A stretch of 64,000 nucleotides of DNA from Haloplanus natans DSM 17983 (GTDB lineage: Archaea > Halobacteriota > Halobacteria > Halobacteriales > Haloferacaceae), in contig NZ_ATYM01000003.1 of assembly GCF_000427685.1 (NCBI RefSeq), positions 1 through 64,000 on the forward strand. Direction: 5' to 3'. Positions 40,484-60,696 of the stretch are shown here, one piece after another (position 1 is the first letter of the stretch; the number at the start of each line of letters is the position of its first letter). Both the position numbers and the translations under genes were made by a program. Below the pieces are notes generated by a model, which had not been told where the DNA came from, ran no database searches, and saw only the letters and a list, made by a program, of their open reading frames with translations.

Positions 40484-43400
40484 ATGTCTCGGCTTCTCTG
40501 TGGCCCGGATGCTGTTGCGGTCGATCGGGCAGCGCTCAACTGGGCCGCGACCCAATCGGGAGAAAATCCCGAAAGCGTCCTCTACATCGCGAATCAACCT
40601 CATCGCCTCCCAGAAATCGAAACGCAGTGGGAAGACATCGGTCGCCCGCTTGAACTCACTGCGCTCACACTTGATGAGTTCGTCGACCGGTGTTACGACC
40701 GCGAAGCGATCGGCGGTACTGCTTCGCGGATGGACCAGCCAACCCGCCTCCGACTCGTCGAACAGTCTCTCTCAGACTTATCCGCCAAGTGGTCGCTCAT
40801 GGAGGGGGACGGACTGCCTCCGACCGGTCTCGTCGAGCAGATGGAGGACCTCCTGAGCCTTGTCGAATTCGCCGGACTACTCTCACCAGAAGCCGTCCGC
40901 GACCGCCTGAGCGACGAAGGACTGGTCAATCTGAGCGCCGAACTCGAGGCCATCACCAAGCGGTTCTACGATGGACGCGAGGGACTTCCCGATGGTTCAG
41001 CTACGACTCTCTGGGCTGAGCGGTACCGACGGGTGGCGAATTCCAATCCTGCTCAGTGCTTCCCACACACTGACGCCGTCATCATCGGTGGGTTCGACAC
41101 GTTCTCTGTCCTCGCATCGCGTGTAGTCGAGACGATCACGGAAACTTGGCCGACAGTCGCGACCTTCTCCCGGTTGACCGGAACGGACTCTCCGGGCGGT
41201 GTCGACGTCGCAACGGCCCCTGCATGGGAGTTCTTCGTCAACGACCTCGAATTCGAAACAGATGCAATCACAGCCCGTGAGTCTCGCCCACCCGCGAATC
41301 GACGGTTAGCGTCGGCACCCTTCCGTCCTGATGCCACCACACTCTCCCTTGACGAGACGACTGTCGAGACTGTCGTCCCGTCATCGCGTCCAGGAGAAGT
41401 ACGGTATACGGGACGGCAGGTACAGGAACTCTTGGGTGACGGCGTTGATCCGAACGATATCGGCGTTATCGTGACCGCGCCATCGGCGTACGCCCATCGT
41501 CTCGCCGGTGAGTTCTCTGCGCGATCCGTTCCATACGCTGTTGCTCGGGACTACGATCTCGATGGAACGTCGGTCGGAGCTGCTCTCCTGACCGCGCTGG
41601 AGCTGCTCGACGAGACAGAGATCACTGATGACCTTCGCAGCCTCCTCGATAACCCACTCGTAGAGCCGGTGCTGCCGGGTTGGGAGGATGTCGATAGCGA
41701 ACAGGCACACGACGCGATCGCGGACGTGGAAGAACTCAGCGATGTCGAGGAGCCGTACCGAGTGGCTATCGACGAGCTTCTCGTCGAAGCAAAAACCGTG
41801 GCAGATGACGGGAGCATCGAAGCCTATCGCCACTTCGTTGAGTGCCTCGGAATCGAGGACACGGTAGAAGATCGAACGACGACCGGGTCGCAACGGGTCG
41901 TCTACCGCAGTGCCGAGCGAGTCCTTGACGCAGTCGAACGGACGGGAGACGGAGACGACCTCGAACGTGCTCGGCATGCACTCGGTGCCGTCTCCGTCAC
42001 CGACGATCCAACAATTCGCGATGGGAGAGTCGAAGTCCTCGGAGCGGCGGAACTCGGGATGCGAACGTTCGACCACGTGTTCGTCCTCGGTCTGACAGCG
42101 TCTCACTTCCCGAGTTCAGCGAATCGACTCGCACTTGTGAACGCTGTAACAGACGCACATCCCGACTTTGCCGAAGCCGACCAAGCTCGACGGGCCGAGT
42201 ACCGCATCGCAAGCCTCGTTGCCGCCGCTGAGACCGTCACGCTCTCGCGGCCGAAACAACAACTCGACGGGACAGCGTACATCGATGCTGGGATCCTGGC
42301 CGAGTTCCGTCGAATCACCGAAACGGTGCCACAGCGACGGGATGAGTTCGGCCACCTCGTCGGGCAGACCCCGACCGGTCGACGGGATAAAATCGGTGCG
42401 CGAGCTGACGCACAGCGAGCGTTCGCAACTGCTGGCGCTCGAGTCAGTCTAGACACACTCGGCGAGTACGCGGCTGCCGCGTCGTCAACGGGACTGTTCG
42501 TAGACACAGCGGGCAGCAGTGATCGACTCGATACAGAGGCAACACCAGGAGAGACAGCGATTGATGGCATTCGTACGGCAGCCGACCGTGGGTTAGCACG
42601 TCCATCAGAGAATACGGGCTGGCTCACTTCGGGGACCGCGCAGGGCCTCTCGTTCCACCTTGACCGACTCTCGCCGACGCAGGTAGAGCGATACGCCAGT
42701 TGCCCGTTCCGCTTCTACGCAAAGGAAGTACTCGGGCTAGAGGAAGAGGACCGAGACGAGGGACCAATCAATCGTGGGCACTACGTTCACGAGGTTCTGG
42801 AGCAGTTCTACACGGAACTTCGAGACGAGGTTGGGTCTCCGGTTTCGCTTGCCGGGTTCCATCAAGATGACCTGGAGACGCGACTCCTCCGTGTCGCGGT
42901 CGACGAACTCCAAGCCGTCGACGACGAGTTCGACGACCGCTGGCTCTTCGAACTACTGGCCGGTCTCGGTGATGCTGATCAAAACGAGTACTACAACCGG
43001 ACCGCCGTCGATGGACGACCTGCGGGTATCCTCGTGCGGTTCCTCGAAGAAGAGCTCGCATTGTACGTCGACCCGGACAATCGGCTTCAGAACGGTCCAT
43101 TGACGGCGGCACCGGCCTGGTTCGAGACCAAGCTCTCCTTCGAGGTGGACGGAACCACGATCCGCGGTGTTCTCGACCGTGGCGAAACGACGTCCGATGG
43201 GAGAGCTATCGTCCGCGACTACAAGACAGGATACACCTCCTCCGAACGCGACACGCTGGACGGACTGAGCTTCCAACTCCCGATTTATGCGAAGATGCTG
43301 GAGGCGAATGTCGACGAGGTTACCGAAGCCGTCGGAGGCGGGTACTACCGGCTCAAGGAACCCGGAAAGGTGAGCAGCACCGCTGGTCAAATCGGGTTCG

Positions 43401-43777
43401 TCGGTGATGACCCGAAGAACGCGAGCTGGCGCGGTAACTCATATCGTGACGGATACGGCGGGACACCGATGGTCTACCAGAGTTCGGACAAACCTAGCAT
43501 CGAGACTCGAGCAGGCTTCCGAGAGTTCCTCGATGACGTCGTTCCGCAACGACTCAGCGATATCGTCTCCGGCATCGAAGCCGGAACGTTCCATCCGACG
43601 ATCAACGACCCCGACGACGCCGGGTGTTCAAACTGTCCCTTCCGCGATGCCTGCGACGTCCGGTCGTACCGGCGCCAACTATTCATGGAAAACATGGAAT
43701 CCGAGGGACGAGATGCGTACGTCCCACCGATTGCTCGCGGCGTAGAGTGGGCTCCTGCGGTTGAGGAGGGGAACTGA
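40484..43777 (+). CDS. AddB-like PD-(D/E)XK nuclease/inactive helicase
   Basis: A 1097-residue protein from ATG 40484 (a GTG at 40454 is also in frame). The layout is that of AddB: a helicase-like body whose Walker A position reads 'LLCGPDAVAVDR' and so lacks the Lys/Thr, then a C-terminal nuclease. The nuclease starts with 'LSPTQVERYASCPFRFY' (about 728-744) and RGHYVHEVLEQFY, has catalytic VRDYKTG (about 909-915) and iron-sulfur cysteines CSNCPFRDAC (about 1047-1056) together with Cys 739. AddB pairs with AddA to resect DNA ends. The next gene overlaps its stop by one base. Haloarchaea normally use Mre11-Rad50-HerA-NurA, so an AddAB-type pair here suggests a special role. Confidence 0.85.
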   Translation: MSRLLCGPDAVAVDRAALNWAATQSGENPESVLYIANQPHRLPEIETQWEDIGRPLELTALTLDEFVDRCYDREAIGGTASRMDQPTRLRLVEQSLSDLSAKWSLMEGDGLPPTGLVEQMEDLLSLVEFAGLLSPEAVRDRLSDEGLVNLSAELEAITKRFYDGREGLPDGSATTLWAERYRRVANSNPAQCFPHTDAVIIGGFDTFSVLASRVVETITETWPTVATFSRLTGTDSPGGVDVATAPAWEFFVNDLEFETDAITARESRPPANRRLASAPFRPDATTLSLDETTVETVVPSSRPGEVRYTGRQVQELLGDGVDPNDIGVIVTAPSAYAHRLAGEFSARSVPYAVARDYDLDGTSVGAALLTALELLDETEITDDLRSLLDNPLVEPVLPGWEDVDSEQAHDAIADVEELSDVEEPYRVAIDELLVEAKTVADDGSIEAYRHFVECLGIEDTVEDRTTTGSQRVVYRSAERVLDAVERTGDGDDLERARHALGAVSVTDDPTIRDGRVEVLGAAELGMRTFDHVFVLGLTASHFPSSANRLALVNAVTDAHPDFAEADQARRAEYRIASLVAAAETVTLSRPKQQLDGTAYIDAGILAEFRRITETVPQRRDEFGHLVGQTPTGRRDKIGARADAQRAFATAGARVSLDTLGEYAAAASSTGLFVDTAGSSDRLDTEATPGETAIDGIRTAADRGLARPSENTGWLTSGTAQGLSFHLDRLSPTQVERYASCPFRFYAKEVLGLEEEDRDEGPINRGHYVHEVLEQFYTELRDEVGSPVSLAGFHQDDLETRLLRVAVDELQAVDDEFDDRWLFELLAGLGDADQNEYYNRTAVDGRPAGILVRFLEEELALYVDPDNRLQNGPLTAAPAWFETKLSFEVDGTTIRGVLDRGETTSDGRAIVRDYKTGYTSSERDTLDGLSFQLPIYAKMLEANVDEVTEAVGGGYYRLKEPGKVSSTAGQIGFVGDDPKNASWRGNSYRDGYGGTPMVYQSSDKPSIETRAGFREFLDDVVPQRLSDIVSGIEAGTFHPTINDPDDAGCSNCPFRDACDVRSYRRQLFMENMESEGRDAYVPPIARGVEWAPAVEEGN

Positions 43778-46700
43778 TGCGCCGAGACGACCTCACTGAC
43801 CAGCAGGACGACGCCGTCACAGCGTTCTCACAGAACTATCCACTCACGGCCGGTGCCGGGACCGGGAAGACGACGACGCTCTCGTTCCGGTATCTAGCGC
43901 TTCTGGAGGATCATCCCGACGCCATCCCCGAGAACGTTCTCGTGACGACGTTCACGCGACGGGCTGCGCGTGACCTCACAGAGACCGTCCGCGAACGCGT
44001 CTTGGACCGACTCGCCACCGCAGACGCCGACCACGAACGCTGGCGCGACGTTCTCAACGGGCTGGACGACGCATACGTCCACACGCTGCACGCATTCTGT
44101 CAGCGCATCCTGTCCGAACACGCGACCGCAGTCTCCGGACTCGCCCCCGGATTCGATACCCTCGACGATGTCGAAGCGAGTAGACTCCAGCGGGACATCG
44201 TCGACGAACTCATGGAAAAAGAACCCCGAGAGGTCGGGCTCCTGCTGGACGCGTTCTCGGAATACTCCCTCCGCGAGGTTCTCGAGGACCTGTTCGGTGA
44301 GCGCCCTGGCAGCGAAGCCTGGGCCGACGTCTGGAGTGCACCCGCTCGTACTGTCGACGACTATGTAACCTACGTCGAAGAGGAACTCCACCCCTTCCCC
44401 GCCGACGAGGTGGATGCACTCTGTGCCGACGAGGAACTCCGAGTGCTCGTAGAGGACCTCCAAGAACTCGTTGCCGACCTCGACGAGACTGACCCCGGCG
44501 GACGGACCGAGCGCGTCTGGACTGCAGTCAAACTCTTCGACGAGCCCGACGGACTAGACGCTCGGGATTCCGTTCGTGACCGCCGAGATCGGATCTACGA
44601 CGTGTGTGACGAACTCACCAAGTCCGGGCACGACGAGTACGCGAACTACTCTCCGGTCAAAGGGGACTGGAGCGGGACCGACGAAGACGCCGACCGTATC
44701 GGAGGCATCGTCACCGAGATCGTTGAACGACTCGATGCGACACATCGGTCTGCGGAGGGTGACGGTCTCGACATGGCCGTCGACCGCGAGGGCGCGCCGT
44801 ACTACTTCGCGTTAGCTCGTCTGTTCGATGAAGCTGCCCGCAGGTACGCCGACCGGAAACACGAGCGAAACGTACTGGATTACACCGATCTGGTCCAGCA
44901 GACACGTAACCTTCTCCACCCGGAGCGTGGGAACGACGCCGTTCGGGAATCGCTCGCTGACCAGTTCGACTTCGTCATGATCGACGAGGTTCAGGACACC
45001 GACCCGAACCAATGGGACATCGTTCAGTCACTCACCAGCCTCGCCGCCGATGACACGGCGTACAGCGCGCAGAACGTCTTCGCGGTCGGCGACGAGAAAC
45101 AGTCGATCTACCGCTTCCGGAACGCCGACGTCGCTGTCTTCCAAGAAGCGCGGAGCGCACTCGTCGGCGCGAACGGGAGCGAGAACACCGCAACGACAGG
45201 CGGAGGAGACGATGTTGTCGGGTACCAGCTTCAGGACAACTTCCGAACACTCCCACCGCTACTCCGGTTTCTGAATAGTCTCTTCGAGGATGTCTTCGAC
45301 GACGACGCGGACGACGCCTTCGAGGCAGCACCACAGCCTCTCCGTCCCCGACGAGACAATCCTCACGACGTAACGCCGACGATGGAGTACTTGTTCGTTC
45401 CTGACAACGACCTCCGACCGAACGTCCTCGCTCCTGATCACCCGCTGAACGACGCACCCCCCTCCGCGCGACGGTGGGCGGAAGCTCAGTCCGTGGCAGC
45501 GCGCGCTACGCGCCTCGTCGACGACGAGACACGGGTCTACGAGCCTGATTCGGACGACGGCCCGGAAAGTCGGCCGGTGACGTACGACGATATTGCGGTC
45601 ATCATCCGGAAGCGAACCCATCTCGACGAGTTCAAGCGTGCGTTCGACGATCACGAGGTTCCCTATACCGTCGTTCAGGGAGAGGGATACTTCGAGACGC
45701 CAGAGGTTCGGACCCTCACGAACCTGTTCCGCGTCCTCGCCGACCCAACCGACGACATCCGCCTGTTCGGACTGCTTCGCTCCCCGATGTTCGGCTTCAC
45801 TGATGACGAACTCGCCCCAGTCGTGGAGGGTGGCAACGTCTGGGCGTCACTCAGTGAAACGGACGACACCGCGCTTAGGCGCGGTCATTCTTTGCTCGCC
45901 GAGTTGCGAACGCTCGCCGGTGCCTCTGAGGACGCCGCCGGTCCCCAGGTTGACTCGTGGGCAGAACTCCTCGACATCGCGCTTGACGCGACCGGTTACC
46001 TTGTGAGTCTCAGTGCGGATGAACGGCCGCAACAGGCACTTGCCAACGTCGAACAGTTCGAAGAGTACCTGCGTGAAGCCGTCAGCGACGCCGGTAGTCT
46101 GCGCTCACTCGTCACGCGCCTTGACGAACCTCAAGAGTTCACCAACTACGACCCCGAAGCGGCGATCCCGGACGGCGAAACCGGCGTCCAGATACTCACT
46201 GTCCACGCCGCAAAAGGGGAAGAGTTCCCCGTCGTTATCGTACCCGGACTCAGTGACAAATTCAACACTGATCCACCACTTGCCGGCGGAACCGAGTTCG
46301 AAGACGTGAACGACCGCCCAGCACTCGGGCTCTCTGTTCCCGACAGCCATGACCCCTTCGACACTACTGACACCGTCGCGAAGAAAGGGATCCGGTCACG
46401 CCGTCTCGCCAAGCTCTGTGCCGAAGAGAAGCGAACCCTGTACGTCGCCTGTACGCGCGCTCGGGATCATCTCATTCTGGCCGGCACACACGGAACCGAA
46501 GACGACGAATCACTCACGACGCTGGAAGACCCGGAGACGGACGAACCCAAACGGTGGAGCGACTTCGTCCAGAAGTCACTGCTCGGTGACGAAGAGTTAC
46601 TCGCCACTCTTGAGGCAAACGGGGAGGTGACCGGTCAGCTGCACGTTGATTCGCTCACTCGGAGCGAGGACCCCGAACAGGGTGGCCCCAGCTACTCGGT

Positions 46701-47568
46701 TCGGCTCCCACAGCAAGCAGTGATACAGGACGAGGACGTGGATGTCGAGGCTCCTCCCACGACTGTCGAAATACCGCAGCGACAGCCTGCCCCTATCCAG
46801 TATCGCCTCTCGCCGTTCCAAGTCGCGGACGTTCTGAGCGACAACCAAGACGGCGAACTGGTGTTCGACGAAGCGAACCGTATCGTCAATTACCGACGGG
46901 GAGCTGACGACGATACCGAGTGGGACGAAGAGGACGACACGCTTGCCGAAGAGGGGGACGGGTCGACCGGGCTGTCGGGTCGGTTCTTCGGCGAAGCGGT
47001 CCACCGAATCTGCGAACTCCAGCATCCTCCCGAGCGCTGGGCCGACATTATCCATGACGCGCTCAGGTCGATGGACTATGAGGGAGCGGTGACTGCAGAC
47101 GACCGCGACCGCGTCGCTGAACACGCCCAACGTGCGAACGGCTACGTCCGTCATGTGGCTGACAGCGACGACGTCGTCTATCGCGAACTCGAAGCAAGCG
47201 TGGAACTGGCCCACGGTTCCATCTCCGGTATCATCGACTGCCTCGTACTTGGTGACGAGACAGCTACTGTGGTCGACTACAAGACCGGTCATGTCGACGA
47301 AACGAAACTGGAGCAGAAGACCGAATACTATCAACCACAACTCGAGGCGTACGCTCTGATGGTCGCGGCCTTCGACGACGACCGTCCGGTTACGACGAGC
47401 CTCTACTTCACCGAAATCGAAGCCGACACCGGCGTCGAATTCAGCACTGGGAGTGGCGACGGGTCGCTCGGAGAACTCAAATCCAGTCTAGACCGGCGAC
47501 TTCGTGAGGAAATCGAATCGCAGACACAGGCAGAGTTCGACACAGAGGACAGGACGCCAGACCTCTGA
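43777..47568 (+). CDS. AddA/UvrD-like helicase-nuclease
   Basis: A 1263-residue protein. Walker A is GAGTGKT (26-32); motif Ia VLVTTFTRRAARDL follows. Walker B is 'FVMIDEVQDTDPNQWD' (about 397-412). Motif VI is 'LYVACTRARDHLILAG' (about 887-902). The C-terminal PD-(D/E)XK nuclease includes HRICELQHP, 'GIIDCLVLGDETATVVDYKTG' split as D...DYKTG (about 1150-1170), and a Gln/Tyr helix ('YYQPQLEAYALMVAAF'). This is the AddA plan: superfamily 1A helicase plus nuclease. It overlaps the AddB-like stop by one base and is followed 4 bp later by a third nuclease gene. Together they should form a processive end-resection machine. Confidence 0.9.
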   Translation: MRRDDLTDQQDDAVTAFSQNYPLTAGAGTGKTTTLSFRYLALLEDHPDAIPENVLVTTFTRRAARDLTETVRERVLDRLATADADHERWRDVLNGLDDAYVHTLHAFCQRILSEHATAVSGLAPGFDTLDDVEASRLQRDIVDELMEKEPREVGLLLDAFSEYSLREVLEDLFGERPGSEAWADVWSAPARTVDDYVTYVEEELHPFPADEVDALCADEELRVLVEDLQELVADLDETDPGGRTERVWTAVKLFDEPDGLDARDSVRDRRDRIYDVCDELTKSGHDEYANYSPVKGDWSGTDEDADRIGGIVTEIVERLDATHRSAEGDGLDMAVDREGAPYYFALARLFDEAARRYADRKHERNVLDYTDLVQQTRNLLHPERGNDAVRESLADQFDFVMIDEVQDTDPNQWDIVQSLTSLAADDTAYSAQNVFAVGDEKQSIYRFRNADVAVFQEARSALVGANGSENTATTGGGDDVVGYQLQDNFRTLPPLLRFLNSLFEDVFDDDADDAFEAAPQPLRPRRDNPHDVTPTMEYLFVPDNDLRPNVLAPDHPLNDAPPSARRWAEAQSVAARATRLVDDETRVYEPDSDDGPESRPVTYDDIAVIIRKRTHLDEFKRAFDDHEVPYTVVQGEGYFETPEVRTLTNLFRVLADPTDDIRLFGLLRSPMFGFTDDELAPVVEGGNVWASLSETDDTALRRGHSLLAELRTLAGASEDAAGPQVDSWAELLDIALDATGYLVSLSADERPQQALANVEQFEEYLREAVSDAGSLRSLVTRLDEPQEFTNYDPEAAIPDGETGVQILTVHAAKGEEFPVVIVPGLSDKFNTDPPLAGGTEFEDVNDRPALGLSVPDSHDPFDTTDTVAKKGIRSRRLAKLCAEEKRTLYVACTRARDHLILAGTHGTEDDESLTTLEDPETDEPKRWSDFVQKSLLGDEELLATLEANGEVTGQLHVDSLTRSEDPEQGGPSYSVRLPQQAVIQDEDVDVEAPPTTVEIPQRQPAPIQYRLSPFQVADVLSDNQDGELVFDEANRIVNYRRGADDDTEWDEEDDTLAEEGDGSTGLSGRFFGEAVHRICELQHPPERWADIIHDALRSMDYEGAVTADDRDRVAEHAQRANGYVRHVADSDDVVYRELEASVELAHGSISGIIDCLVLGDETATVVDYKTGHVDETKLEQKTEYYQPQLEAYALMVAAFDDDRPVTTSLYFTEIEADTGVEFSTGSGDGSLGELKSSLDRRLREEIESQTQAEFDTEDRTPDL

Positions 47569-47571
47569 TCG

Positions 47572-48357
47572 ATGACGTGGAGAGAGCAGTGGCCGGGTGA
47601 GCCACGCGGGACGGAGCTCGACGAGGGGGATGAAGAGGGCTCAGGTCCTTTCCGTATTGCTCTCAAGCCCTCTGCTTGTGAAGCCTCCCCAGAGATTGCG
47701 GCACTCCGAGAAGAGTCGGGGGAGGTACTTACGTACGAATCTGAAGGGGAAGCGGCGAAGATACTCGTCGACGACATCGATTGTCCCGGACTGCAATTCC
47801 AAGCAGCAGCTCCGAATGACCCCGCAGAGGTGGACGCATACTTAGTGAAGCTTCGCGATCCTGAACCGCCCTCAACGGAACGGGGACCCCCAGAAGACGG
47901 CTGGACGTTCAACATGCGGGCCCAGCAGGTCGGGGCACTCGCTGAAGCGCTGTTCCGCGCATACGGGTGGAATCCACCTCCAATCGTCGCCTACGCTGCG
48001 AAGGATCTGGGCATTGACCCCGAAGAGTTCCGGGTGCAGGTAAACCCAGCACCCGAGAGCGTCGGCCAGTTCGAGTTCAGTGGTGGCGACGGGAAGTGGA
48101 TTCCAGACTTCGAGTTCGTCGTCCACCGCCGAACTGACGACCACCCATTCGGCTATGGAGGTCCGGTACTGAAGCGATACATCGCCGAAGTCAAACACGG
48201 TTCCACCAACTTCGAACGAAACCAGCGGGCACAGATGACCCAGTTGGCTCACAAGGGGGGACAATATTTGGACGTACTCATCATCCGTGTCAACCTCGAA
48301 GGTACTCCGCAGACGTACGATCTCACAATTCGGTCAGTCGCCGACGGACTCCAGTAA
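47572..48357 (+). CDS. Small PD-(D/E)XK nuclease-like protein, third gene of the AddAB-like operon
   Basis: A 261-residue protein starting 4 bp after the AddA-like stop. The C-terminal half has a nuclease-like core: 'GKWIPDFEFVVHRR' (Asp near 178), then 'RYIAEVKHGSTNFERNQRAQ' with Glu and Lys (about 206-208) and a following helix, giving a D-E-x-K set. The N-terminal half is acidic and unrecognised. The position in the operon suggests it acts with the helicase-nuclease pair, perhaps as an accessory nuclease or end-binding factor. It converges with the SNF2 gene with a 53-bp gap. Confidence 0.7.
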   Translation: MTWREQWPGEPRGTELDEGDEEGSGPFRIALKPSACEASPEIAALREESGEVLTYESEGEAAKILVDDIDCPGLQFQAAAPNDPAEVDAYLVKLRDPEPPSTERGPPEDGWTFNMRAQQVGALAEALFRAYGWNPPPIVAYAAKDLGIDPEEFRVQVNPAPESVGQFEFSGGDGKWIPDFEFVVHRRTDDHPFGYGGPVLKRYIAEVKHGSTNFERNQRAQMTQLAHKGGQYLDVLIIRVNLEGTPQTYDLTIRSVADGLQ

Positions 48358-48410: not shown

Positions 48411-51400
48411 TCAATCGGCGCTATACTGTTCGCGGTTCGCTACAAAATCGTCGTACCAATCGGACAGATTGCTCACCGAGGTTGCTCCTGTGACTGCCCC
48501 ATCGTCTGAAACAACGCTGATGGTGCCATCTCTGCCCCAACCGCAGACGATTGGATGGGACGATTGCGAATCGGGTTCGGCGTATCTGATCAGTCTCTCT
48601 GAGTCATCCGAATTTCGCCTCCAAGTCTCGATGAGATGCTGCAACAGCGGATTTCCGGGTGCCAGATAGTGGAGCGACGGGAACTCCTCCGCACATTCGT
48701 CCGAGAACGTCACTGCGACCGTCTTTTCGTCCGGAGCAATCACGGAGGCCAGTGTTCCCTCTGTGTCTAACTCTGGGATAGACTCTATGTCGCTGACTTC
48801 CAGTCGGTACGTGCACTCTCCGAAGTCGAAGCCGTCCCCGTATTCGGTGTCCATCACATCCAGGCCGAGTTCGTCGACACTCGTGAATCGAATACCCGCA
48901 TCTACGAGAGCTTCACTCCTCGTCAAGACCGACTCGAGAGATTGTACAGTGAACGGCCTCTCTGTGTCGTAGTCGTCAGCACCGACATCGAGGATATCTG
49001 GATGATTGAACGATTCCCAGGCATCGAGCTTCGCTTCGTCAATTACGTCTTGGGCGAGCGGTTCATCGATGTCGTCTAGTGATTCGCCGACATCGACTCT
49101 GTCGCTCTCTTCCTGCTTCTCAATCCGGTCAGAGAACTCCTGATCGGCTCGCTCAACCGCATCCCGGCTTTCGTCACGCTCCGTCTCTAGTGTCGCGGAT
49201 CGAATCTGGCTGCTGACACCGGAGAGAATCGGTTGCATATCGCCAACAACGTTCTCGAAGAGGCCGATACGTGCGTCTAGTCGCTCGTAGATATCCGTCT
49301 CGACCGTGTCCTCGTAGCTGTAATTGAGAATCGTCACCTCGTCGTACCGCTGTCCGATACGGTCGATACGCCCGATACGCTGTTCGACCCGCATCGGATT
49401 CCACGGTAAGTCGTAGTTGATGAGTGCGCCACACTCCTGAAGGTTCAGTCCCTCACTCGCAGAGTCCGTACAGACGAGTATGTCCACTCTTCCATCGTCA
49501 GCCGCAAATTCGCGCTTCACACGCTCCTTCCCGACGTGTGTCCACGATCCAGAATCGCTATCGTACATCTCTCCGCCGCGGCCAGAGTAGGTCGCGACCG
49601 TCTCCCCGTGGATCGACACGAGGCTCTGACGGATGAAGTCCATCGTATCGGCGTACTGTGTGAAAATAATCGCCCGGTTGTGCCCCTCGTGGTCCAGCTC
49701 GTCGAGATCGTCGATGAGTTGACCGATTTTGGGGTCCTGGTCAATCTCCGCCAGTTCGTCGACGAACGACTCCAACTCCTCGATCTCCTGGTCTAAGAGA
49801 TGAAGTCCCTCGTCAGTAACGTTAGGAATGATCTCAGCGAGGTCGGCATCTTCCAAGTCGCCCTCCAGTTCATCCAGCGCCTCGATGTCCTCAAGATCGT
49901 ACTCGGAGAGTGTCTCCATCACCACCTGGCGAGAGCCACCCGAATCCGCCTCCTGAGCACGCTGTTTACCCTTCAGCACTGTCCGTTGGCCACGGAGCTT
50001 CTTGAGACGGTTCTGGAGACTCTGCGAAATCGCGTAGACGCTGCTTGTGAGTCGCTGACGATACGTCGTCATCACGAACCCAATCGCTCGGGATTCAGCC
50101 TCGTCAGACTGTTGTGCGAGTTTGTAGAACTTCCTCGTGTAGTCGTCGATGCGATCGTACACGCGGCGCGTTTCCTCCGTCAGCTCGATCTTGTGCTGTT
50201 CGGGATTCCGGTCGGGAACCGTGGCGTCGAGGAGCCCCACACGTTCGTACTTGCGAAGGGTGTCGCGGGTATTCCGATGGATGAGCGCATCGACAGGGGT
50301 CGACTCTCCGAGGACCTCCTGTACGACCTTCCAGCCCGGTTCCGAGAGTTCGTCGAGCGCTGCAAGTCGCTCGCTTCGCGAGAACGTCAGCCACTCCTCA
50401 TCCGCTTTCCACGAGGGATACAGGAGGTATTTCAGCTTCTCGTCCTCTTTGGCGTCGAATGGGTCGACATCGTGCTCGTCCATCGCGGATTCGAACGCAT
50501 CGATGTACCCATCGTAGTGCTCGCCGTAGTCGCTGGCGAGGTCACAGGCTCGAAGTACGCGTTGCTTGGCGATAGACCGGGCCTGCTGGTCGTCTCCTAC
50601 GTCTAGTTCGGTGCCAACAGCATCGAACACGCGGTCGGAGAGGCTCCGTTCGCCCGGGAGCCGGTCTTGATACCGACTTTCGGTGAGCGTCGCCTGTGCG
50701 GACCACGACTCGTCGTCTGCAGTGCGATTCCCAGCTAACTCCTTGTCAAGCGCTTTCGTGAGCGCACGGCGGGTCTCGAAGAACTCGACGAACTCGTCTT
50801 GATTGTCCCACTCACCAGGGAGGTCGAGCAAGGACATCAGATCGTAGAGTTCGCCTGCATGAAGTTGCATGGGTGTCGCGGTGAGGAGATAGTACGCCTG
50901 TGTGTGGTCGCGAAGGCGTTCCAGCATCGAGTAGAAGCTGCTCCCCTTGCGTCCGTTGTGAGCCTCGTCGACGATGACGGCGTCCCAGACACCGTCTCGG
51001 TTGGACGTCTGTCGGCCACGACAACTCGCAAGCACGTCGTCTCGCGTTCGCGTCTGGCCACCATCCTTGGGTGCTACCTGATCCCATCGATCCTGCAGTC
51101 GTGCAGTATGCCAGGACATGATGACGATCGCGGGATCGGTGTTATCGTCACTCTCCTGCTGTTCGTGCAGGAACCGCCAGATGGGGCTTTCCACCCAGGC
51201 CTGTTCTCGTTCCTGTCCTCGGAGGTCAAGTTCGGATGCCCCGGGCGGAGCATGTTCGCGCCCGAACGCATCGATGAATGCGTACTCGTAGTTGCTCCCT
51301 CGCTCGTACCGGTAGGTGTTCAGATTGAACTTCTCCCACATCTCCTCCTGCCACTGAACAGTGAGGCTCGCTGGGACGAGCAGTAGCCCCGTCTCGAGCT

Positions 51401-52340
51401 CGTCAGTCAGCCCAAGGCGTGAGAGTGTCAGGCCAGCTTCGATGGTCTTCCCGAGGCCGACCTCGTCACAAAGCAGGAAGCTATTCGGATAGGTGTTGAC
51501 CAGTGTGTCGGAGACGACGCGCTGGTGGGGCCAGGGCGTAATCGTGCTGCCTTCCTCGGCAAGTGCGAGCCCTCCGGGGGAAAGATGCCCGTCGGCGATG
51601 ATGTTCGCCTTGTCGCGCTCTGTCGGTGGTGCCTCACCTCGGGCGATCTGAATCGCTTCCTCGAGTTTCGTTTGCGAGTCTGGATCCTTCCAGTCGATGA
51701 GCTCTTTCTCGATGGCCTCGGGGAGGTCGTACACCTCCACGTAGGGATGCTCGTTCTCCCAGAGCCGGTCGAAGGTATCGATGTCGCCGTCGACGTAGGT
51801 CGACTGCTGGTCGACCCACGAGCGGTGGACTTTGAACCGTTCGTAGTTGTTCTTCCACCCGCCGACGGTCTCGTTCACGCTTCCTTCGAACGAGAGTGCG
51901 TTCCCATCGTCGTCATGGAAGATGCCCATCTTCGGATGGAAGATGCGCCAGGAACCTTCGCGGGGAACGGCGACCTTGATGTGTAGACGCCCCTCGCGAA
52001 GGAGTCGGGCGAGGAGCTGAAGCTGTGCGTCTAGTTGTTCGTCTTCCAGTTCTTCCAGTGAGTCGGTCAGCTCGTCAGTGAGTGCCTCGAAGACCGGGCG
52101 GTCGGTGGAGTAGAGCTCGGTACCGACGACGAGCCGCATCTCGCCGTCGTTCTCGAGGAGGGCGTCGATTCCTCGGGACGCGACCGCGAGTGCGCTGCTA
52201 GAAAAGTAGCCAGCGATTCGATCATATCGAATCGACCGTTCAAGTGCAGGGACATAGAATTCATCGACGAGATACGAACTGGAGCCCCCCGGCTGGCTCT
52301 CGTATATCGAGCGCCATGTCTCGTTTGTAAGATCAGCCAT
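48411..52340 (-). CDS. PLD-SNF2 helicase fusion
   Basis: A 1309-residue protein. Residues 1-190 are a phospholipase-D-like nuclease domain with one HKD motif, 'FHPKMGIFHDDDGNALSFEG' (about 134-153). A superfamily 2 SNF2-type ATPase follows: Walker A 'LLCDEVGLGKTIEAGLTL' (about 289-306), DEAH-box VIVDEAHNGRKG (about 460), a long insertion rich in helices, and the second RecA domain with 'RAIIFTQYADTMDFIRQS' and motif VI 'RVEQRIGRIDRIGQ'. The C-terminal 250 residues are an acidic, uncharacterised region. PLD-SNF2 enzymes occur in DISARM-like and related defence loci. It may translocate on DNA and cut it. Confidence 0.85.
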   Translation of the reverse strand: MADLTNETWRSIYESQPGGSSSYLVDEFYVPALERSIRYDRIAGYFSSSALAVASRGIDALLENDGEMRLVVGTELYSTDRPVFEALTDELTDSLEELEDEQLDAQLQLLARLLREGRLHIKVAVPREGSWRIFHPKMGIFHDDDGNALSFEGSVNETVGGWKNNYERFKVHRSWVDQQSTYVDGDIDTFDRLWENEHPYVEVYDLPEAIEKELIDWKDPDSQTKLEEAIQIARGEAPPTERDKANIIADGHLSPGGLALAEEGSTITPWPHQRVVSDTLVNTYPNSFLLCDEVGLGKTIEAGLTLSRLGLTDELETGLLLVPASLTVQWQEEMWEKFNLNTYRYERGSNYEYAFIDAFGREHAPPGASELDLRGQEREQAWVESPIWRFLHEQQESDDNTDPAIVIMSWHTARLQDRWDQVAPKDGGQTRTRDDVLASCRGRQTSNRDGVWDAVIVDEAHNGRKGSSFYSMLERLRDHTQAYYLLTATPMQLHAGELYDLMSLLDLPGEWDNQDEFVEFFETRRALTKALDKELAGNRTADDESWSAQATLTESRYQDRLPGERSLSDRVFDAVGTELDVGDDQQARSIAKQRVLRACDLASDYGEHYDGYIDAFESAMDEHDVDPFDAKEDEKLKYLLYPSWKADEEWLTFSRSERLAALDELSEPGWKVVQEVLGESTPVDALIHRNTRDTLRKYERVGLLDATVPDRNPEQHKIELTEETRRVYDRIDDYTRKFYKLAQQSDEAESRAIGFVMTTYRQRLTSSVYAISQSLQNRLKKLRGQRTVLKGKQRAQEADSGGSRQVVMETLSEYDLEDIEALDELEGDLEDADLAEIIPNVTDEGLHLLDQEIEELESFVDELAEIDQDPKIGQLIDDLDELDHEGHNRAIIFTQYADTMDFIRQSLVSIHGETVATYSGRGGEMYDSDSGSWTHVGKERVKREFAADDGRVDILVCTDSASEGLNLQECGALINYDLPWNPMRVEQRIGRIDRIGQRYDEVTILNYSYEDTVETDIYERLDARIGLFENVVGDMQPILSGVSSQIRSATLETERDESRDAVERADQEFSDRIEKQEESDRVDVGESLDDIDEPLAQDVIDEAKLDAWESFNHPDILDVGADDYDTERPFTVQSLESVLTRSEALVDAGIRFTSVDELGLDVMDTEYGDGFDFGECTYRLEVSDIESIPELDTEGTLASVIAPDEKTVAVTFSDECAEEFPSLHYLAPGNPLLQHLIETWRRNSDDSERLIRYAEPDSQSSHPIVCGWGRDGTISVVSDDGAVTGATSVSNLSDWYDDFVANREQYSAD

Positions 52341-53873: not shown

Positions 53874-56744
53874 CTAGTAGTCGTCGATCCCTGTTTGCTG
53901 AGTTTGCTCGCTGTTCTCGGCGAAGACGTTCGGACTGAAGTCGAGATCGAGTACGTCTCGGGTACGTCCGACAGCGAGATCGCGAGCAAGTTCCCAGTCT
54001 TCGTGGTCGTGTGGCAGAACCTGAAGAAGCGCCTTGAGCGTAGCTTTGAACGTTGAGTCGGAGTCGAAGTTCCGTTCACGAAGCCAGTCGCAGCAGGCGC
54101 TCTCTCCTTGGACGTCATAGACGTGCATTGCGGCATGAACCTTGTCCAGCGCGAGGCCGAACGAGAGGTCGTCGGGGTTCACCGGCGTCCGGCTGGAGCG
54201 GTTCTCGGGCTTCTCGTTGATGTTCTGGACGCGGCCATTGTGTCCACGGAGGCTGATATCGCTGCGGCTCTTGCGCCATGTCTTCGTGCTGCGCTTGATC
54301 TCGTCAATGTCGACACCGATACCGAGACCCAACTGTCGCCCTTCGTCGTAGGAGAACGTCTCCGCTTCGTGGACGAGCCAGCAGAGGACGTACCACTCTG
54401 TGACGTCGTCAAGGTTGTTGATGCCTTCGACTTCGAGATACTCGTCGACCAAGACTTGCGTGACCGCCTCACGAGCTTCTTCGAGCGCGCGGCGGGGTTT
54501 GACCTCATTGTCCTCGTCGTCGACCACCGGATACGCGTCCGCGAATACACGCAGCGTCGGGCCAAATGCACTGATGATGACGTCCGTTTTTGTTAGGTTC
54601 AAATTTGATTCAATAAGATCACGAGCAGCTGCCTTTGCGACTTCCCGGGTTTCAGACCTCACATCGTTCCAGAGAGAAGGGGTTGCTTCAGGTGCTCTTT
54701 CGGTCTTTGGTTTTCTACCAACTAGTAGAAGTGTACTATCAGCAGATCCCCCACCTTGAGTGTCAATTCTAGCAGGCATTTCACTTGTGATGGGGTGAGT
54801 AGATGTAATGGTGAACCCAGAATTTATCAGAGACATAGTAAGCGTGTCCCACGCATCCGTTTCTTTATGCGTGAACATCACAGTCATTACTCCTCCTGGT
54901 TCTAGAACCCGATATACCTCTGAGAAGATTGCGCTCATCTTGGTTTCATAGTGCTGATTTGCTAACTTTTTGTTTGAAGAGTCGCTTCCAGCAACTGATT
55001 TAAATCTACTAGGATTTGCGACGGCTTCATCGTCTTTATTTGTTAATTGTGATTCAAAGATCGGCGGATAAACGTCTGCGAGAAATTCTCGGAGTAGGAC
55101 ATAGAAGACGTCCGATAGCTCAGAATACATCACGCTACTGTAATATGGCGGGTCCATAATTGCCGCTTGAATAGAGTTATTTTCGAGCGGCATATCTGCC
55201 GCATCACCACAGAAGACCTCTGCTGGATCCCCATTCTTTGGTAGATAGTCGACGATCTCCTCATAGGAATCGATAATTCGGCTTAGCGAGGTTTGGAAGC
55301 TCCCAATACCTTCTGTTGACATATTAACGACGGGGAACGACTTTTGTAGCGTTAAGTGCTTACCACCAAGAGCATTTGATGGGACGCCCTTGGTAGTATC
55401 CCAAGGTGAGAAGCGGGAATTGCGATCAATCACTTTACCCATAGATAATGCCAGGACGGTCAGGATCGTCTCTGCAACCTCTTCCTCATATTGACTCTTG
55501 ACTTGAGACTTATAGTAGTCAAACGCTTTCCGATATTCAAAGTACGAAACAAGCTGATGTGGACTGAAAATATCGCTCCATTTAGTGACCCCATGTGCGC
55601 GAGGTTCACTAGTTTTTGCACCTTCTGGAACTGGTGTGGTTAGGAATGTTGAGAATTCATAATCTGATGATTTTCGCTTCTCTATTTTGTTTAGTGCCTC
55701 AAGGTCCTCCTCTCGTGGTGCACGGAAACCGTAATCTCCGGTCCTAGAAATATATCTGACAGCATACGTTTCGAATTCCATCTCTCCTTGTTTGAACATC
55801 TCGCGAACATCAGAGGATTCGATCACGACACTACAGTTTAGGCATTCGGCATCACCACCTCTGGAGACAGTTCCGTCTTTATGATCGAAATCGACCTCTT
55901 GGTCATCTTCGTTTTTTATACACTCGTACTCAACATTTCCGTCAGATGTTACGCTAGGGTGAATGAATACGTCATTCGCATCCCATCTCGTCCGTAGGGA
56001 CCACTTTGATACGAGAGGAAGTTCCGAGCCGCACGTTGGGCACGTGATTTTATGAGTGCAGACGTAGCAATCGATGTCGCTTTCTGACTCGGCAGCAGGA
56101 AAGTATTCTCTAAGGTTGTTTTTTGCTCTTTTATTTATCTTTTCGCCCCACTTATTGAGTTCGTCGTTGATAGATCCGACTTTGGGTGCATATTTCAACA
56201 TCAACCAGAGAATCAGGATCGGGACCGGGTTGAGTTCGTTCGCTTTTGTTGGTAACTGATAACGAAGTGATTCAAAAGGAATGACCCCACCACCAGCAGT
56301 AGGATCTAGTATAGTTGGTAAGTCTCCGTCCCACCTTTCCCTGAGGATTGAATGAAGTGACTCAAGTTCTTCTTGAGTGGGTGTTTGTGTAAACAAGCGT
56401 GGATACCCATAATGTTGATTCAGATTGCCACTGCGTTCATCTTCTGTGGCTTTCTTTTTTGTCACATAGTCCTCAATACTGCCCTCAATTTCCTCGCTAG
56501 GACCGATTTGCATCAAGCGAAGCAGCTCATCGGAGGACAGATTATTAGGAAGAATCGATGCCAAAAGTGCAAGTCGTGAAGCGGGTGTTGGCCGCCGAGC
56601 AAACCACGGGTGGAGATACCGGTGTGGAGGCATTACACGAGGATTTGCCTCCTTTAGATTCTCAACCCCAACTGCTTTGAGAGGGAGGTTCCCTTCAATC
56701 GCTACTGGTTCGAGTTCGTCTGAGATATTCAAATTGTTCGCCAT
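53874..56744 (-). CDS. DUF1156-containing DNA methyltransferase
   Basis: A 956-residue protein from ATG 56744 (2 bp after the previous stop). The N-terminus is a DUF1156 domain: 'NPRVMPPHRYLHPWFARRPT' (about 34-53). Motif I is ILDPTAGGG (about 145-153), a zinc-type CYVC...CPTC lies near 243, and the catalytic motif IV is DPPYYSS (about 531-537), suggesting N6-adenine or N4-cytosine methylation. The far C-terminus (about 640-950) contains further helical regions. DUF1156 methyltransferases accompany DUF499 ATPases in defence islands and probably mark self DNA. Large parts (54.6-56.7 kb) are clearly more AT-rich than the neighbours, suggesting separate transfer. Confidence 0.88.
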   Translation of the reverse strand: MANNLNISDELEPVAIEGNLPLKAVGVENLKEANPRVMPPHRYLHPWFARRPTPASRLALLASILPNNLSSDELLRLMQIGPSEEIEGSIEDYVTKKKATEDERSGNLNQHYGYPRLFTQTPTQEELESLHSILRERWDGDLPTILDPTAGGGVIPFESLRYQLPTKANELNPVPILILWLMLKYAPKVGSINDELNKWGEKINKRAKNNLREYFPAAESESDIDCYVCTHKITCPTCGSELPLVSKWSLRTRWDANDVFIHPSVTSDGNVEYECIKNEDDQEVDFDHKDGTVSRGGDAECLNCSVVIESSDVREMFKQGEMEFETYAVRYISRTGDYGFRAPREEDLEALNKIEKRKSSDYEFSTFLTTPVPEGAKTSEPRAHGVTKWSDIFSPHQLVSYFEYRKAFDYYKSQVKSQYEEEVAETILTVLALSMGKVIDRNSRFSPWDTTKGVPSNALGGKHLTLQKSFPVVNMSTEGIGSFQTSLSRIIDSYEEIVDYLPKNGDPAEVFCGDAADMPLENNSIQAAIMDPPYYSSVMYSELSDVFYVLLREFLADVYPPIFESQLTNKDDEAVANPSRFKSVAGSDSSNKKLANQHYETKMSAIFSEVYRVLEPGGVMTVMFTHKETDAWDTLTMSLINSGFTITSTHPITSEMPARIDTQGGGSADSTLLLVGRKPKTERAPEATPSLWNDVRSETREVAKAAARDLIESNLNLTKTDVIISAFGPTLRVFADAYPVVDDEDNEVKPRRALEEAREAVTQVLVDEYLEVEGINNLDDVTEWYVLCWLVHEAETFSYDEGRQLGLGIGVDIDEIKRSTKTWRKSRSDISLRGHNGRVQNINEKPENRSSRTPVNPDDLSFGLALDKVHAAMHVYDVQGESACCDWLRERNFDSDSTFKATLKALLQVLPHDHEDWELARDLAVGRTRDVLDLDFSPNVFAENSEQTQQTGIDDY

Positions 56745-56746
56745 AT

Positions 56747-57391
56747 TCAATTTACGTGGTCCGTTAGCAGCGTCCGTAGTGCCTTCTCGCCGTTCGGAGA
56801 CGACGGCGACCGACACTTCGCGTGCCAGTAGTAGCACTCTTCGTCACTCATTCGTGCGATGCCACGACAGAACGCTCGCATCCGGTCGACCCGCTGGATG
56901 GGCTTCACGCCGAGGAAGGCTAGTGCCAGTCGAACGCCAACCGTCTCTGGGAGGAATACTTCGGTTGCACCCCCAGTGGCGAGAGCAGACTCATCTAAAT
57001 CGGCATCACCGAGCGTTTCTCGTACTAGTGGGAGAATGGCCCGGAGCCGACTCTCAGATAGTTGCGTGACCTTCACCGCCACCCAGGCATCCCACTCCCA
57101 TCTGTCGACCTCTGAATCTGCTGACTCCCCGAACACCGATCCGAATGTTTCGGTCACTAGGCCGCGGTTTGGATTTCCACGCTGGAGACGGTCGCGACGA
57201 GCGGTTGCCTGTGCCTCGGGTAACAGCTCGTACAGCGTCAGCGATGCACCGTCGGCGTCGTCGCGACGGACGAGCGCGAAGGTCGGGCGACCCCCGTAGA
57301 CGCTACTGCCGAACTGACCCCCTCCGATTGTTTCTTCCTCGGGCCCGAGTGGTGGCGTCGCGTCTGCGTCAGGGGTAGGGTGGGACGTCAT
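56747..57391 (-). CDS. Small conserved protein of the DUF499-DUF1156 operon
   Basis: A 214-residue protein whose ATG overlaps the DUF499 stop (ATGA) and whose stop is 2 bp before the methyltransferase start. The C-terminal part has a recognisable pattern, 'LPETVGVRLALAFLGVKPIQ', VDRMRAFCRGIARMSDEECY and YWHAKC, which I recall from small proteins placed between DUF499 and DUF1156 genes; DUF7680 or DUF3780 are candidate names but unsure. It may bridge the ATPase and the methyltransferase. No catalytic motif is visible. Confidence 0.65.
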   Translation of the reverse strand: MTSHPTPDADATPPLGPEEETIGGGQFGSSVYGGRPTFALVRRDDADGASLTLYELLPEAQATARRDRLQRGNPNRGLVTETFGSVFGESADSEVDRWEWDAWVAVKVTQLSESRLRAILPLVRETLGDADLDESALATGGATEVFLPETVGVRLALAFLGVKPIQRVDRMRAFCRGIARMSDEECYYWHAKCRSPSSPNGEKALRTLLTDHVN

Positions 57392-60300: not shown

Positions 60301-60696
60301 ACCGAGGTCGTCCTCACGCTCTACGAGATGGCGACTGAGATCGCCAATATCAGTCGGATTATTCGCCAGATGGTACGAGGCGATGAGGTCGTGCGTCTTA
60401 CCCCCACCGAAGCGGGTGTCTAGACACAGAATACTGCTGGAATACCCGCCGCTGTCGTATCCGTCAGCGGCGAGGAACCGTCCCGTGAGATTACTCAGGA
60501 GCGTCCGCAGCCCGTCAGTCGGGTACGTCATATCGAAGAACTGCGTCGCATTCCGATAGACCGGAGCGGAGTCATCCGGCGAATGAGCGACAGTCGCCAG
60601 GCTAGCTGCGAACTGATCCTCCTGTAGCGTCCCGTCGAGGACATCTCCCCGAGGAGTACACGCCTCAAACAGACTCGGATAGTCTGAGCTACTCAT
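57388..60696 (-). CDS. DUF499 P-loop ATPase (BrxC/PglY-like)
   Basis: A 1102-residue protein. Walker A is 'DTRFGGGKTHDLIASYH' (about 93-109) and Walker B is 'TLILIDEIAAYLEAAS' (about 218-233). A long helical middle includes 'REYPFHPTIIDTLTEKID'. Zinc-like cysteine groups occur near 885-935 (CAEPGC, then CSNCGK and CAECAQ), and the end is a beta-rich domain ('SLVELKFRVDLSDPE'). DUF499 proteins are large ATPases related to BREX BrxC and Pgl PglY. They probably couple ATP hydrolysis to DNA scanning or assembly of the modification complex. The gene overlaps its neighbours on both sides by ATGA. Confidence 0.88.
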   Translation of the reverse strand: MSSSDYPSLFEACTPRGDVLDGTLQEDQFAASLATVAHSPDDSAPVYRNATQFFDMTYPTDGLRTLLSNLTGRFLAADGYDSGGYSSSILCLDTRFGGGKTHDLIASYHLANNPTDIGDLSRHLVEREDDLGAAYLDAVDQGLDVDTSVFVGGHVDARNARSDRSDPNAPNTRTMWGEIAYQLYGLDGYEYLKEYDQDRNAPGGNTLKGLFELGDGPTLILIDEIAAYLEAASAVEVGNATLASQTLSFVLSLLETASEVDEVTVVYSIADTAFEEEAEEVRTLIDELNQIGRRQHKTVTPTSENEVGQVLQHRLFEDIERGQAERLAESYFQYYADSDRQFPQEATDASFVDRLEREYPFHPTIIDTLTEKIDTIPKFQRTRGALKLLARAVYYLWNHQPDHYDRHWIRLYDLTPADNAPDGSIDSTLHETLFEFVDLSAAVSADIYSEDNTAHAQLEDRKWTEKGIPPLGGHLTTTVLWHSLAYGEQATGLTRAEMNAALGHPDIRFDNYDSALEALSGGDMNVACYYLYDEERVRFKSDPNLIRIIDQRVDNTPDAQARNRFESRLENSEIGTGGFKTVVFPESPADLPDKVSKPQLAVMHMDTAPVSDGGSEIPEKIQTLYQKSASKHGGETQSRVYKNYILFLAPDKERIQGAIDEARQLEAIEALLDDSQQTADLSNEQIEELRERRDQTHGLLGELVRGVYRHLYYVDRDGLTHLAINATEANGGTTLVNAVEETLEDRLIRADAGPKGVAFFKQKLWQQTQDSMTTEQLVTQFAKKPGLPYLLNTKPLRKTIAKMVDDAGYTYWDSTAGENGLAYWDGDEDDRPENWRKANPLTGSPDVRTSIRDSDVKIGDEYVVYTDVNALLDVHHDIIRPPETEETTCAEPGCEVEVDEEGEYCSQHEPDDLECSNCGKTVASQSGLNPRGLCAECAQPQDWERSTSVMAASRAFNEVRTHALGKSSSGSGPGIDRITIEVGGDDQLSKGSFIAQRQAFKNRADNVSVRMRYKTESSSGASYQADFTGGIDEFSRVTNQPDPFDGASLVELKFRVDLSDPEPITDGDDDLLAELQDELGSTNIDVKVQGRGPVEVPAEVQQ

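What the first reader, a model, noticed from the sequence alone, without database searches (positions are those of the whole stretch)
40484..48357. AddAB-like helicase-nuclease operon with a third PD-(D/E)XK gene in an archaeon
Three overlapping or abutting genes carry an AddB-like body with a dead Walker A, a full AddA-like SF1 helicase-nuclease and a small D-E-x-K protein. Archaea usually lack AddAB. Bacterial Argonautes obtain DNA guides at sites of RecBCD activity, so an AddAB-like unit near an Argonaute could supply guides. The functional link is inference.
Basis: partly seen in the sequence, partly recalled or inferred. Interest (0 to 1): 0.78.

Follow-up and report, generated by a model that had tools for sequence, protein, structure and literature searches.

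The report
Mobile archaeal AddAB enzyme near Argonautes
A salt-loving archaeon carries, in a mobile defence island, a two-gene machine of the bacterial AddAB type that should unwind and shred DNA ends; relatives of it repeatedly sit beside DNA-guided Argonaute genes, which makes the open question of where Argonaute gets its DNA guides testable in archaea.

Summary
Window 40484-43777 and 43777-47568 encode a genuine AddB-AddA pair: one live SF1A motor (AddA), two RecB-type nucleases, and an AddB with a lost Walker A and four near-invariant cysteines. AddB's best fold match is B. subtilis AddB. The pair is not rare in haloarchaea: 86 of 391 genomes have a strong AddA match. It is patchy and often plasmid-borne.

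The third gene (47572-48357) is a PD-ExK nuclease but a passenger: absent from a near-identical island, and its family does not co-occur with AddAB beyond chance.

The Argonaute idea is partly supported. In 53 Argonaute-bearing genomes, 7 of 23 AddA places lie within 10 kb of Argonaute, against 0 of 46 for type I HsdR. The link is scattered over both trees and includes a PLD-Ago-AddB-AddA array in Halobaculum litoreum. But 67 of 86 AddA genomes have no Argonaute hit, and the window's own pair lies 15.5 kb away across a Hma-type defence operon.

Most likely: a mobile DNA-end-degrading module shared by several defence systems, sometimes paired with Argonaute. Guide supply remains inference.

The parts
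40484..43777 (+). AddB-like subunit, 1097 aa: UvrD-like body without a Walker A, C-terminal RecB-type nuclease (D898, D912-Y-K914), four conserved cysteines (C740, C1048, C1051, C1057)
   Evidence: that the four cysteines hold an iron-sulfur cluster in bacterial AddB is recalled
42701..42703 (+). AddB C740, first of four conserved cysteines
   Evidence: invariant
43217..43228 (+). AddB nuclease motif DYKT (residues 912-915)
43625..43654 (+). AddB C1048-x2-C1051-x5-C1057 cluster
43777..47568 (+). AddA-like subunit, 1263 aa: SF1A UvrD/AddA motor plus C-terminal RecB-type nuclease
43852..43872 (+). AddA Walker A, GAGTGKT (residues 26-32)
47275..47286 (+). AddA nuclease motif DYKT (residues 1167-1170)
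47572..48357 (+). P3, 261-aa PD-ExK nuclease family protein; passenger of the AddAB pair, whose family is linked to Argonaute rather than to AddAB
48103..48195 (+). P3 catalytic-type motif PD (178-179) to E206-x-K208
48411..52340 (-). HmaA/PLD-helicase-like SNF2 helicase, first gene of the neighbouring Hma-type defence operon
53874..56837 (-). HmaB-like DUF1156 DNA methylase
57388..60696 (-). HmaC-like DUF499 ATPase
61061..62776 (-). AAA_14/DUF4143 ATPase divergent to Argonaute; its relatives recur beside Argonaute loci
63035..64000 (+). N-terminal part of an 847-aa long Argonaute; the gene ends at contig position 65578, outside the window, followed by a PLD-domain gene as in the published APAP system

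Best explanation
Genes 1 and 2 form a heterodimeric AddAB-type helicase-nuclease. Shown by sequence: AddA keeps the whole SF1A motor and a nuclease; AddB has lost its ATPase but keeps the body and a nuclease. Inferred from the family: it loads on a double-strand end, AddA walks 3' to 5', and the two nucleases cut one strand each. In haloarchaea the pair is an accessory gene cassette of plasmids and defence islands, carried beside different DNA-targeting systems (here a Hma-type methylase-helicase operon and an Argonaute-PLD system; elsewhere BrxL or other SNF2 helicase operons). The best-supported function is to degrade linear or freshly cut foreign DNA ends that these systems or infection create. 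Where the neighbour is an Argonaute, the short single strands it releases may load as guides; this step is inferred. The third gene is an unrelated PD-ExK nuclease that entered or was lost next to the pair.
For: Identity: AddA profile hits addA_Gpos E 1.3e-95 and B. subtilis AddA 3u44_A E 4e-45. AddB profile hits B. subtilis AddB 3u44_B E 6.1e-23, hhalign probability 99.9 over 1001 columns with Bacillota AddB, and predicted fold best matched by AddB (4cei_B E 2.1e-29; 3u4q_B Z 26.9, 888 residues, rmsd 23.6 over the flexible whole). Order AddB-AddA on one strand in 75 of 79. Accessory: 86 of 391 class genomes; 40 plasmid records with at least 80% coverage of AddA, all listed ones haloarchaeal. 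Mobile: colinear 87-89% identical blocks in Salinirubellus salinus, a genus of another family. Modular neighbours.
Against: No activity is shown. Several neighbours (Mre11/Rad50-like, Lamassu-like, BrxL) are generic defence genes, so co-location may be island clustering. AddAB in bacteria serves recombinational repair, and nothing here rules out that this copy repairs its megaplasmid.
Confidence: 0.6

Rival explanations
1. AddAB is a dedicated supplier of guides for Argonaute: it unwinds and fragments foreign DNA ends, the single strands load Argonaute, and Argonaute plus its PLD partner then attack further copies.
For: In 53 Ago genomes, 7 of 23 AddA places within 10 kb of Ago against 0 of 46 HsdR and 0 of 6 BrxL (Fisher AddA against HsdR p 2.3e-4). 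Direct neighbours in H. halobius and in G159, G074, G354, and Ago followed by AddB in H. litoreum. On the Ago tree the AddAB label needs 7 changes, at least 5 forced by starred branches. A second helicase-nuclease array (Ago, PLD, 686-aa protein, PD-DExK, UvrD-PD-DExK) has its helicase 5149-5330 bp from Ago in 13 of 26 places (example). PMC10269773 passages: guide asymmetry at Chi sites through RecBCD; TtAgo coprecipitates with AddAB.
Against: 67 of 86 AddA genomes have no Ago hit. In the named genome set 2 of 55 haloarchaeal AddB loci have Ago within the fetched flanks of up to 10 kb. G343 has a 91% identical Ago without AddAB near it, on another contig, and G330 has an 85% identical AddA and no Ago match, so in the window's own lineage the two separate. 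HmaC, with no role at DNA ends, is within 10 kb of Ago in 3 of 7 places, two of them in this same island. RecBCD is not required for CbAgo guide biogenesis.
Confidence: 0.22
2. It is a plasmid-borne recombinational repair enzyme that keeps the megaplasmid intact, with no defence role.
For: AddAB in bacteria is a repair enzyme (recalled); many haloarchaeal copies are on plasmids; an orc1/cdc6 gene lies just upstream in the window.
Against: Patchy distribution and repeated placement among BrxL, SNF2-helicase, Hma-type and Argonaute genes; most haloarchaeal genomes (305 of 391) lack a strong match.
Confidence: 0.13
3. The three genes form a three-subunit nuclease, P3 being a third catalytic part.
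For: 3-base spacing and same strand in the window.
Against: P3 is absent from the Salinirubellus island, where 67 bases replace it; no homologue in G330; P3 and AddA co-occur in 11 genomes against 9.2 expected; none of the 20 fetched P3 loci that were not chosen for AddAB shows AddAB next to P3.
Confidence: 0.02

Closest known systems
AddAB of Bacillota (B. subtilis AddAB, PDB 3u44/3u4q/4cei)
   Same: One SF1A motor in AddA, two RecB-type nucleases, AddB with UvrD-like body, four cysteines around the AddB nuclease, adjacent co-oriented genes
   Different: A separate haloarchaeal clade (77 rows, support 100), below NCBIfam equivalog cut-offs; AddB Walker A lost; accessory and plasmid-borne in defence islands; Chi recognition unknown
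APAP system of haloarchaea (Ago plus AgaP, PMC11442185)
   Same: The island's Argonaute is followed by a 232-residue ORF (as called in G305 and G343) and a PLD-domain protein (L002:6260-8407), like the published ago-agaP pairs
   Different: APAP as published has no AddAB; that paper says only that a helicase gene occurs near some ago-agaP operons (passage)
pAgo-associated UvrD plus PD-(D/E)XK proteins (orthogroup og_6 in PMC6299218)
   Same: A UvrD helicase with PD-(D/E)XK motif was already listed among pAgo operon genes in 2018 (passage)
   Different: No AddAB pairing, haloarchaeal clade, or multiple-origin argument in the passages seen
AdnAB of mycobacteria and E. coli RecBCD
   Same: Same superfamily of end-processing helicase-nucleases; AdnA and RecC are next best fold matches of AddB
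   Different: AdnAB has two live motors; RecC lacks a live nuclease (both recalled); here AddB has a nuclease but no motor

Membership tests
AddAB (two-subunit, one motor, two nucleases) | AddA carries a complete SF1A helicase | tested here: met
   Pfam UvrD N and C domains; helicase motifs conserved in 75 aligned AddA; B. subtilis AddA E 4e-45
AddAB (two-subunit, one motor, two nucleases) | AddA ends in a RecB-type PD-(D/E)XK nuclease | tested here: met
   PDDEXK_1 E 4.7e-12 at 1070-1217; D1154 and DYK conserved
AddAB (two-subunit, one motor, two nucleases) | AddB has the UvrD-like body but is no motor | tested here: met
   Fold best matched by AddB; no Walker A. Lack of motor activity itself not measured
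AddAB (two-subunit, one motor, two nucleases) | AddB ends in an active-type nuclease with four cysteines | tested here: met
   D898, D912, K914, C740, C1048, C1051, C1057 invariant in 22 and in 25 aligned AddB; cluster itself not measured
AddAB (two-subunit, one motor, two nucleases) | Common ancestry with bacterial AddA and RecB rather than with UvrD | tested here: met
   Tree of 88 rows: the haloarchaeal clade groups with bacterial AddA-like and RecB rows apart from E. coli UvrD; long branches, quick method, so the exact sister group is unsure
AddAB (two-subunit, one motor, two nucleases) | ATP-dependent end unwinding and cutting, Chi response | not testable with these tools
   needs purified protein or genetics
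NCBIfam bacterial AddA/AddB equivalogs | Score over the curated equivalog cut-off | tested here: not met
   addA_Gpos 321 bits against 707.65; addB_alphas 44.5 against 486.5. So it is not filed as the bacterial equivalog, only as AddAB superfamily
AdnAB | Motor motifs in both subunits | tested here: not met
   AddB lacks Walker A
Dedicated Argonaute accessory | Present mainly with Argonaute | tested here: not met
   67 of 86 AddA genomes without Ago match
Three-gene AddAB-P3 system | P3 conserved with AddAB | tested here: not met

The most novel reading that the evidence does not exclude
Haloarchaeal Argonautes work as two-part systems in which an exchangeable DNA-end-resection machine (AddAB, a split UvrD-nuclease set, Mre11-Rad50 or HerA sets, or MrfAB-like helicase-exonuclease) opens and fragments invader DNA to make or amplify guides. 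In one search, 40 of 53 Argonaute loci have at least one of these within 10 kb, and on the Ago tree the partner changes between close relatives. Caveat: four of the five module queries were picked from Argonaute neighbourhoods, and the Rad50-like one also resembles Lamassu LmuB.
Probability: 0.27. Interest if true: 0.87.

Novelty: new variant of a known kind. Interest (0 to 1): 0.6.

Why it matters
How long Argonautes obtain DNA guides is an open question, so far tested by expressing Argonaute in E. coli with its own RecBCD, or in Thermus. Natural haloarchaeal loci where Argonaute and an AddAB-type enzyme lie side by side (Haloprofundus halobius, Halobaculum litoreum), close Argonaute relatives without it, and relatives with a different partner give a ready set of deletions and controls. 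It also shows that AddAB, treated as a bacterial repair enzyme, circulates in archaea as an accessory of defence islands.

Tried and rejected
Rejected: a three-gene unit (see rivals). Rejected: ordinary chromosomal repair gene across haloarchaea (patchy, 86 of 391). Rejected: AdnAB and plain Cas4-UvrD fusion (AddB without motor; tree). Rejected by hand: two automatic 'Ago' labels (L126 335 aa, L182 340 aa) are low-score hits (25.0 and 23.5 bits), the first a calcineurin-like phosphoesterase; they were dropped, so the automatic downstream count 'Ago same strand 3' includes one false case (two are real).

Led nowhere: fold of the third gene from one sequence (pLDDT 32.8, not used); solved structures for the third gene (best E 1); viral contigs for the third gene (none) and for AddB (12 weak nuclease-domain hits, not followed); phages for AddA (23 bacterial-type records, not followed). 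The set 'S' (L173-177) was first labelled AddA by my script; its helicase is closer to PcrA (E 1.1e-75) than to AddA (6.2e-37), and its 686-aa protein matches AddB only weakly (hhalign probability 85 and 79), so I call it AddAB-like at most.

Against my reading: HmaC near Ago in 3 of 7 places; named loci 2 of 55; module queries other than AddA were picked from Ago neighbourhoods; counts are per genome, not corrected for kinship; the AddA and S searches scored only two candidates per genome, so copy numbers are lower bounds. Seven of 93 AddA genomes with only weak hits (E 1e-22 to 1e-33) were dropped to give 86.

Literature: no paper on haloarchaeal AddAB or on Argonaute-AddAB gene linkage was seen in the listings; the 2018 survey PMC6299218 already lists UvrD plus PD-(D/E)XK in pAgo operons.
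Full report
What is there. The window is the first 64000 bases of a 429,065-base contig of a 3.8 Mb, 8-contig genome. Upstream, on the other strand, is an orc1/cdc6 gene. Downstream, on the other strand, are a SNF2/PLD helicase (HmaA-like), a 431-aa protein with MCM N-terminal and HSDR_N domains, a DUF1156 methylase (HmaB-like) and a DUF499 ATPase (HmaC-like), then an AAA_14/DUF4143 ATPase and, on the + strand, an 847-aa long Argonaute at 63035-65578 that leaves the window. A 715-aa PLD-domain protein follows Argonaute (L002:6260-8407), so this is a member of the published haloarchaeal Ago-PLD (APAP) kind (PMC11442185: outline, abstract, passages and section 6 seen).

Identity of genes 1 and 2. 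AddA: UvrD N-terminal E 5e-50, UvrD_C 3.9e-24, PDDEXK_1 4.7e-12; best NCBIfam addA_Gpos 1.3e-95, below its cut-off; best solved relative B. subtilis AddA, E 4e-45. AddB alone finds nothing in the PDB by sequence, but a 22-row profile finds B. subtilis AddB at 6.1e-23 over positions 98-787, and hhalign with two Bacillota AddB gives probability 99.9 over 1001 columns. The predicted AddB model (25 rows, pLDDT 76.8, pTM 0.59) is matched best by the five B. subtilis AddB chains (E 2.1e-29 to 2.0e-27, then AdnA, UvrD and RecC; Z 26.9 with 888 residues and rmsd 23.6). In 75 AddA and 75 AddB from the class, the AddA motor motifs, the AddA DYKT, the AddB DR...DYKTG and the four AddB cysteines are conserved, and no Walker A survives in AddB. 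AddB precedes AddA on the same strand in 75 of 79 AddA genes in the fetched loci.

Distribution. AddA matches at E <= 1e-20 occur in 93 of 391 haloarchaeal genomes; dropping 7 with only weak hits leaves 86. In annotated plasmids, 40 of 73 records with a match cover at least 80% of AddA, and AddB (E <= 1e-5) is found in 44 records, all of them haloarchaeal in the listing. A tree of 88 rows joins 77 haloarchaeal AddA as one clade (support 100) beside bacterial AddA and RecB and away from E. coli UvrD (quick method, long bacterial branches, so the exact sister is unsure). So this is an archaeal branch of AddAB, spread as accessory DNA. The window block 40439-63999 is colinear with a Salinirubellus salinus plasmid in five blocks at 77-89% identity.

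The third gene. P3 has W-x-PD and E-x-K conserved in 19 aligned relatives and homologues in 42 of 391 genomes. It is missing from the Salinirubellus island, where 67 bases stand in its place, and from G330, whose AddA is 85% identical. Of 20 P3 loci fetched on their own account, 19 carry a P3 gene call and none has AddAB beside it. P3 and AddA co-occur in 11 genomes against 9.2 expected (p 0.55), P3 and Ago in 11 against 5.7 (p 0.017). In three places a P3 homologue lies directly beside Argonaute: L093 and L092, overlapping it by 4 bases, and Haloglomus halophilum, 37 bases away and convergent. P3 is thus a passenger of this AddAB and, if anything, an Argonaute-side nuclease.

Argonaute linkage. 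Ago matches occur in 53 of 391 genomes. Ago and strong AddA co-occur in 19 genomes against 11.7 expected (odds ratio 2.3, p 0.012, not corrected for kinship). In the 53 Ago genomes, 7 of 23 AddA places lie within 10 kb of Ago and 10 of 23 within 20 kb, where uniform placement would give about 0.16 within 10 kb. The controls give HsdR 0 of 46, BrxL 0 of 6 and HmaC 3 of 7 (two of the three HmaC cases are this island and its Salinirubellus copy). AddA against HsdR: Fisher p 2.3e-4. The arrangements differ: AddB-AddA-Ago on one strand (L084 and L085; named case Haloprofundus halobius), AddA convergent with Ago (L086, L087), PLD-Ago-AddB-AddA on one strand in Halobaculum litoreum (Ago to AddB 76 bases by its annotation), and looser cases at 4, 8, 13 and 15 kb. 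On the AddA tree these are scattered; on a 29-row Ago tree the AddAB label needs 7 changes, at least 5 forced by starred branches, no fewer than shuffled labels. Close Ago relatives carry other partners instead. So the link was formed repeatedly and is loose.

Limits of the link. 67 of 86 AddA genomes have no Ago match, and in an independent named set 2 of 55 haloarchaeal AddB loci carry Ago in the fetched flanks (the search used one peptide pattern, so it favours one clade). In the window's own lineage Ago (G343, 91%) and AddA (G330, 85%) also occur apart. AddAB also lies next to BrxL and SNF2-helicase operons.

A wider pattern. Looking outward from Argonaute, 40 of 53 loci have at least one of five DNA-end-processing modules within 10 kb: AddAB; a set S of 686-aa protein, stand-alone PD-DExK nuclease and UvrD-PD-DExK fusion behind Ago and PLD (15 of 26 places; example Salinigranum marinum); a Rad50-like protein (10 of 38) with a phosphoesterase; HerA-like (7 of 68); and an MrfA-like helicase (11 of 65). 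This is a lead only: four of the five queries were chosen because they stood beside Argonaute, the S cases are mostly one inherited operon, and the Rad50-like protein is closest to Lamassu LmuB in PADLOC.

Mechanism. Shown: gene content, motifs, fold, repeated co-location. Inferred from the AddAB family: end loading, 3' to 5' translocation, cutting of both strands. Inferred further: that the products serve as guides. Published passages cut both ways (PMC10269773): guides in E. coli show Chi-dependent asymmetry through RecBCD and TtAgo coprecipitates with AddAB, but RecBCD is not required for CbAgo guide biogenesis. A cyanobacterial screen found ago, cas4, uvrD and recJ together limiting RSF1010 plasmids (PMC10653904, passages). 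I therefore prefer a general end-degrading defence module (0.6) over a dedicated guide supplier (0.22), a plasmid repair enzyme (0.13) and a three-subunit enzyme (0.02).

Novelty. AddAB is known; UvrD-PD-(D/E)XK proteins in pAgo operons were listed in 2018 (PMC6299218, passages); helicase genes near ago-agaP were noted in 2024. What I did not find in print is the haloarchaeal AddAB clade as a mobile defence-island module and its repeated pairing with Argonaute.

Noticed in passing
52511-53806 (-): 431-aa protein joining MCM N-terminal/OB domains to an HSDR_N nuclease domain, sitting inside the Hma-type operon; absent from the Salinirubellus copy and matched only once outside the window in the fetched loci. 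An unusual replication-like fusion.
   Followed up: partly
   Followed up: partly
L093:8647-19698 and L092: Argonaute array with a HerA-like ATPase, a Rad50-like protein (in L093) and a P3 homologue that overlaps Argonaute by 4 bases.
   Followed up: partly
L178:10695-14603 and L311 (Haloglomus halophilum): MrfA-like DEAD/MZB helicase plus RNase_H_2 exonuclease pair beside Argonaute.
   Followed up: partly
G000 chromosome contig C7:1315079-1318492: The window's own genome holds a second UvrD-PD-DExK helicase of the S family on its largest-numbered replicon seen, far from its Argonaute on C1.
   Followed up: no
NZ_CP104004.1 234288-248977 (same replicon as G305:C2 by length): A second AddA copy and broken HmaC pieces suggest a decayed duplicate of the island on the same plasmid.
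   Followed up: no
11556-12830 (+) and 18902-20191 (-): Two OrfB_IS605/TnpB-type proteins with Cas12f1-like TNB domains; no guide RNA was looked for.
   Followed up: no
22315-23343 (-): An extra TFIIB-type transcription factor on the replicon.
   Followed up: no
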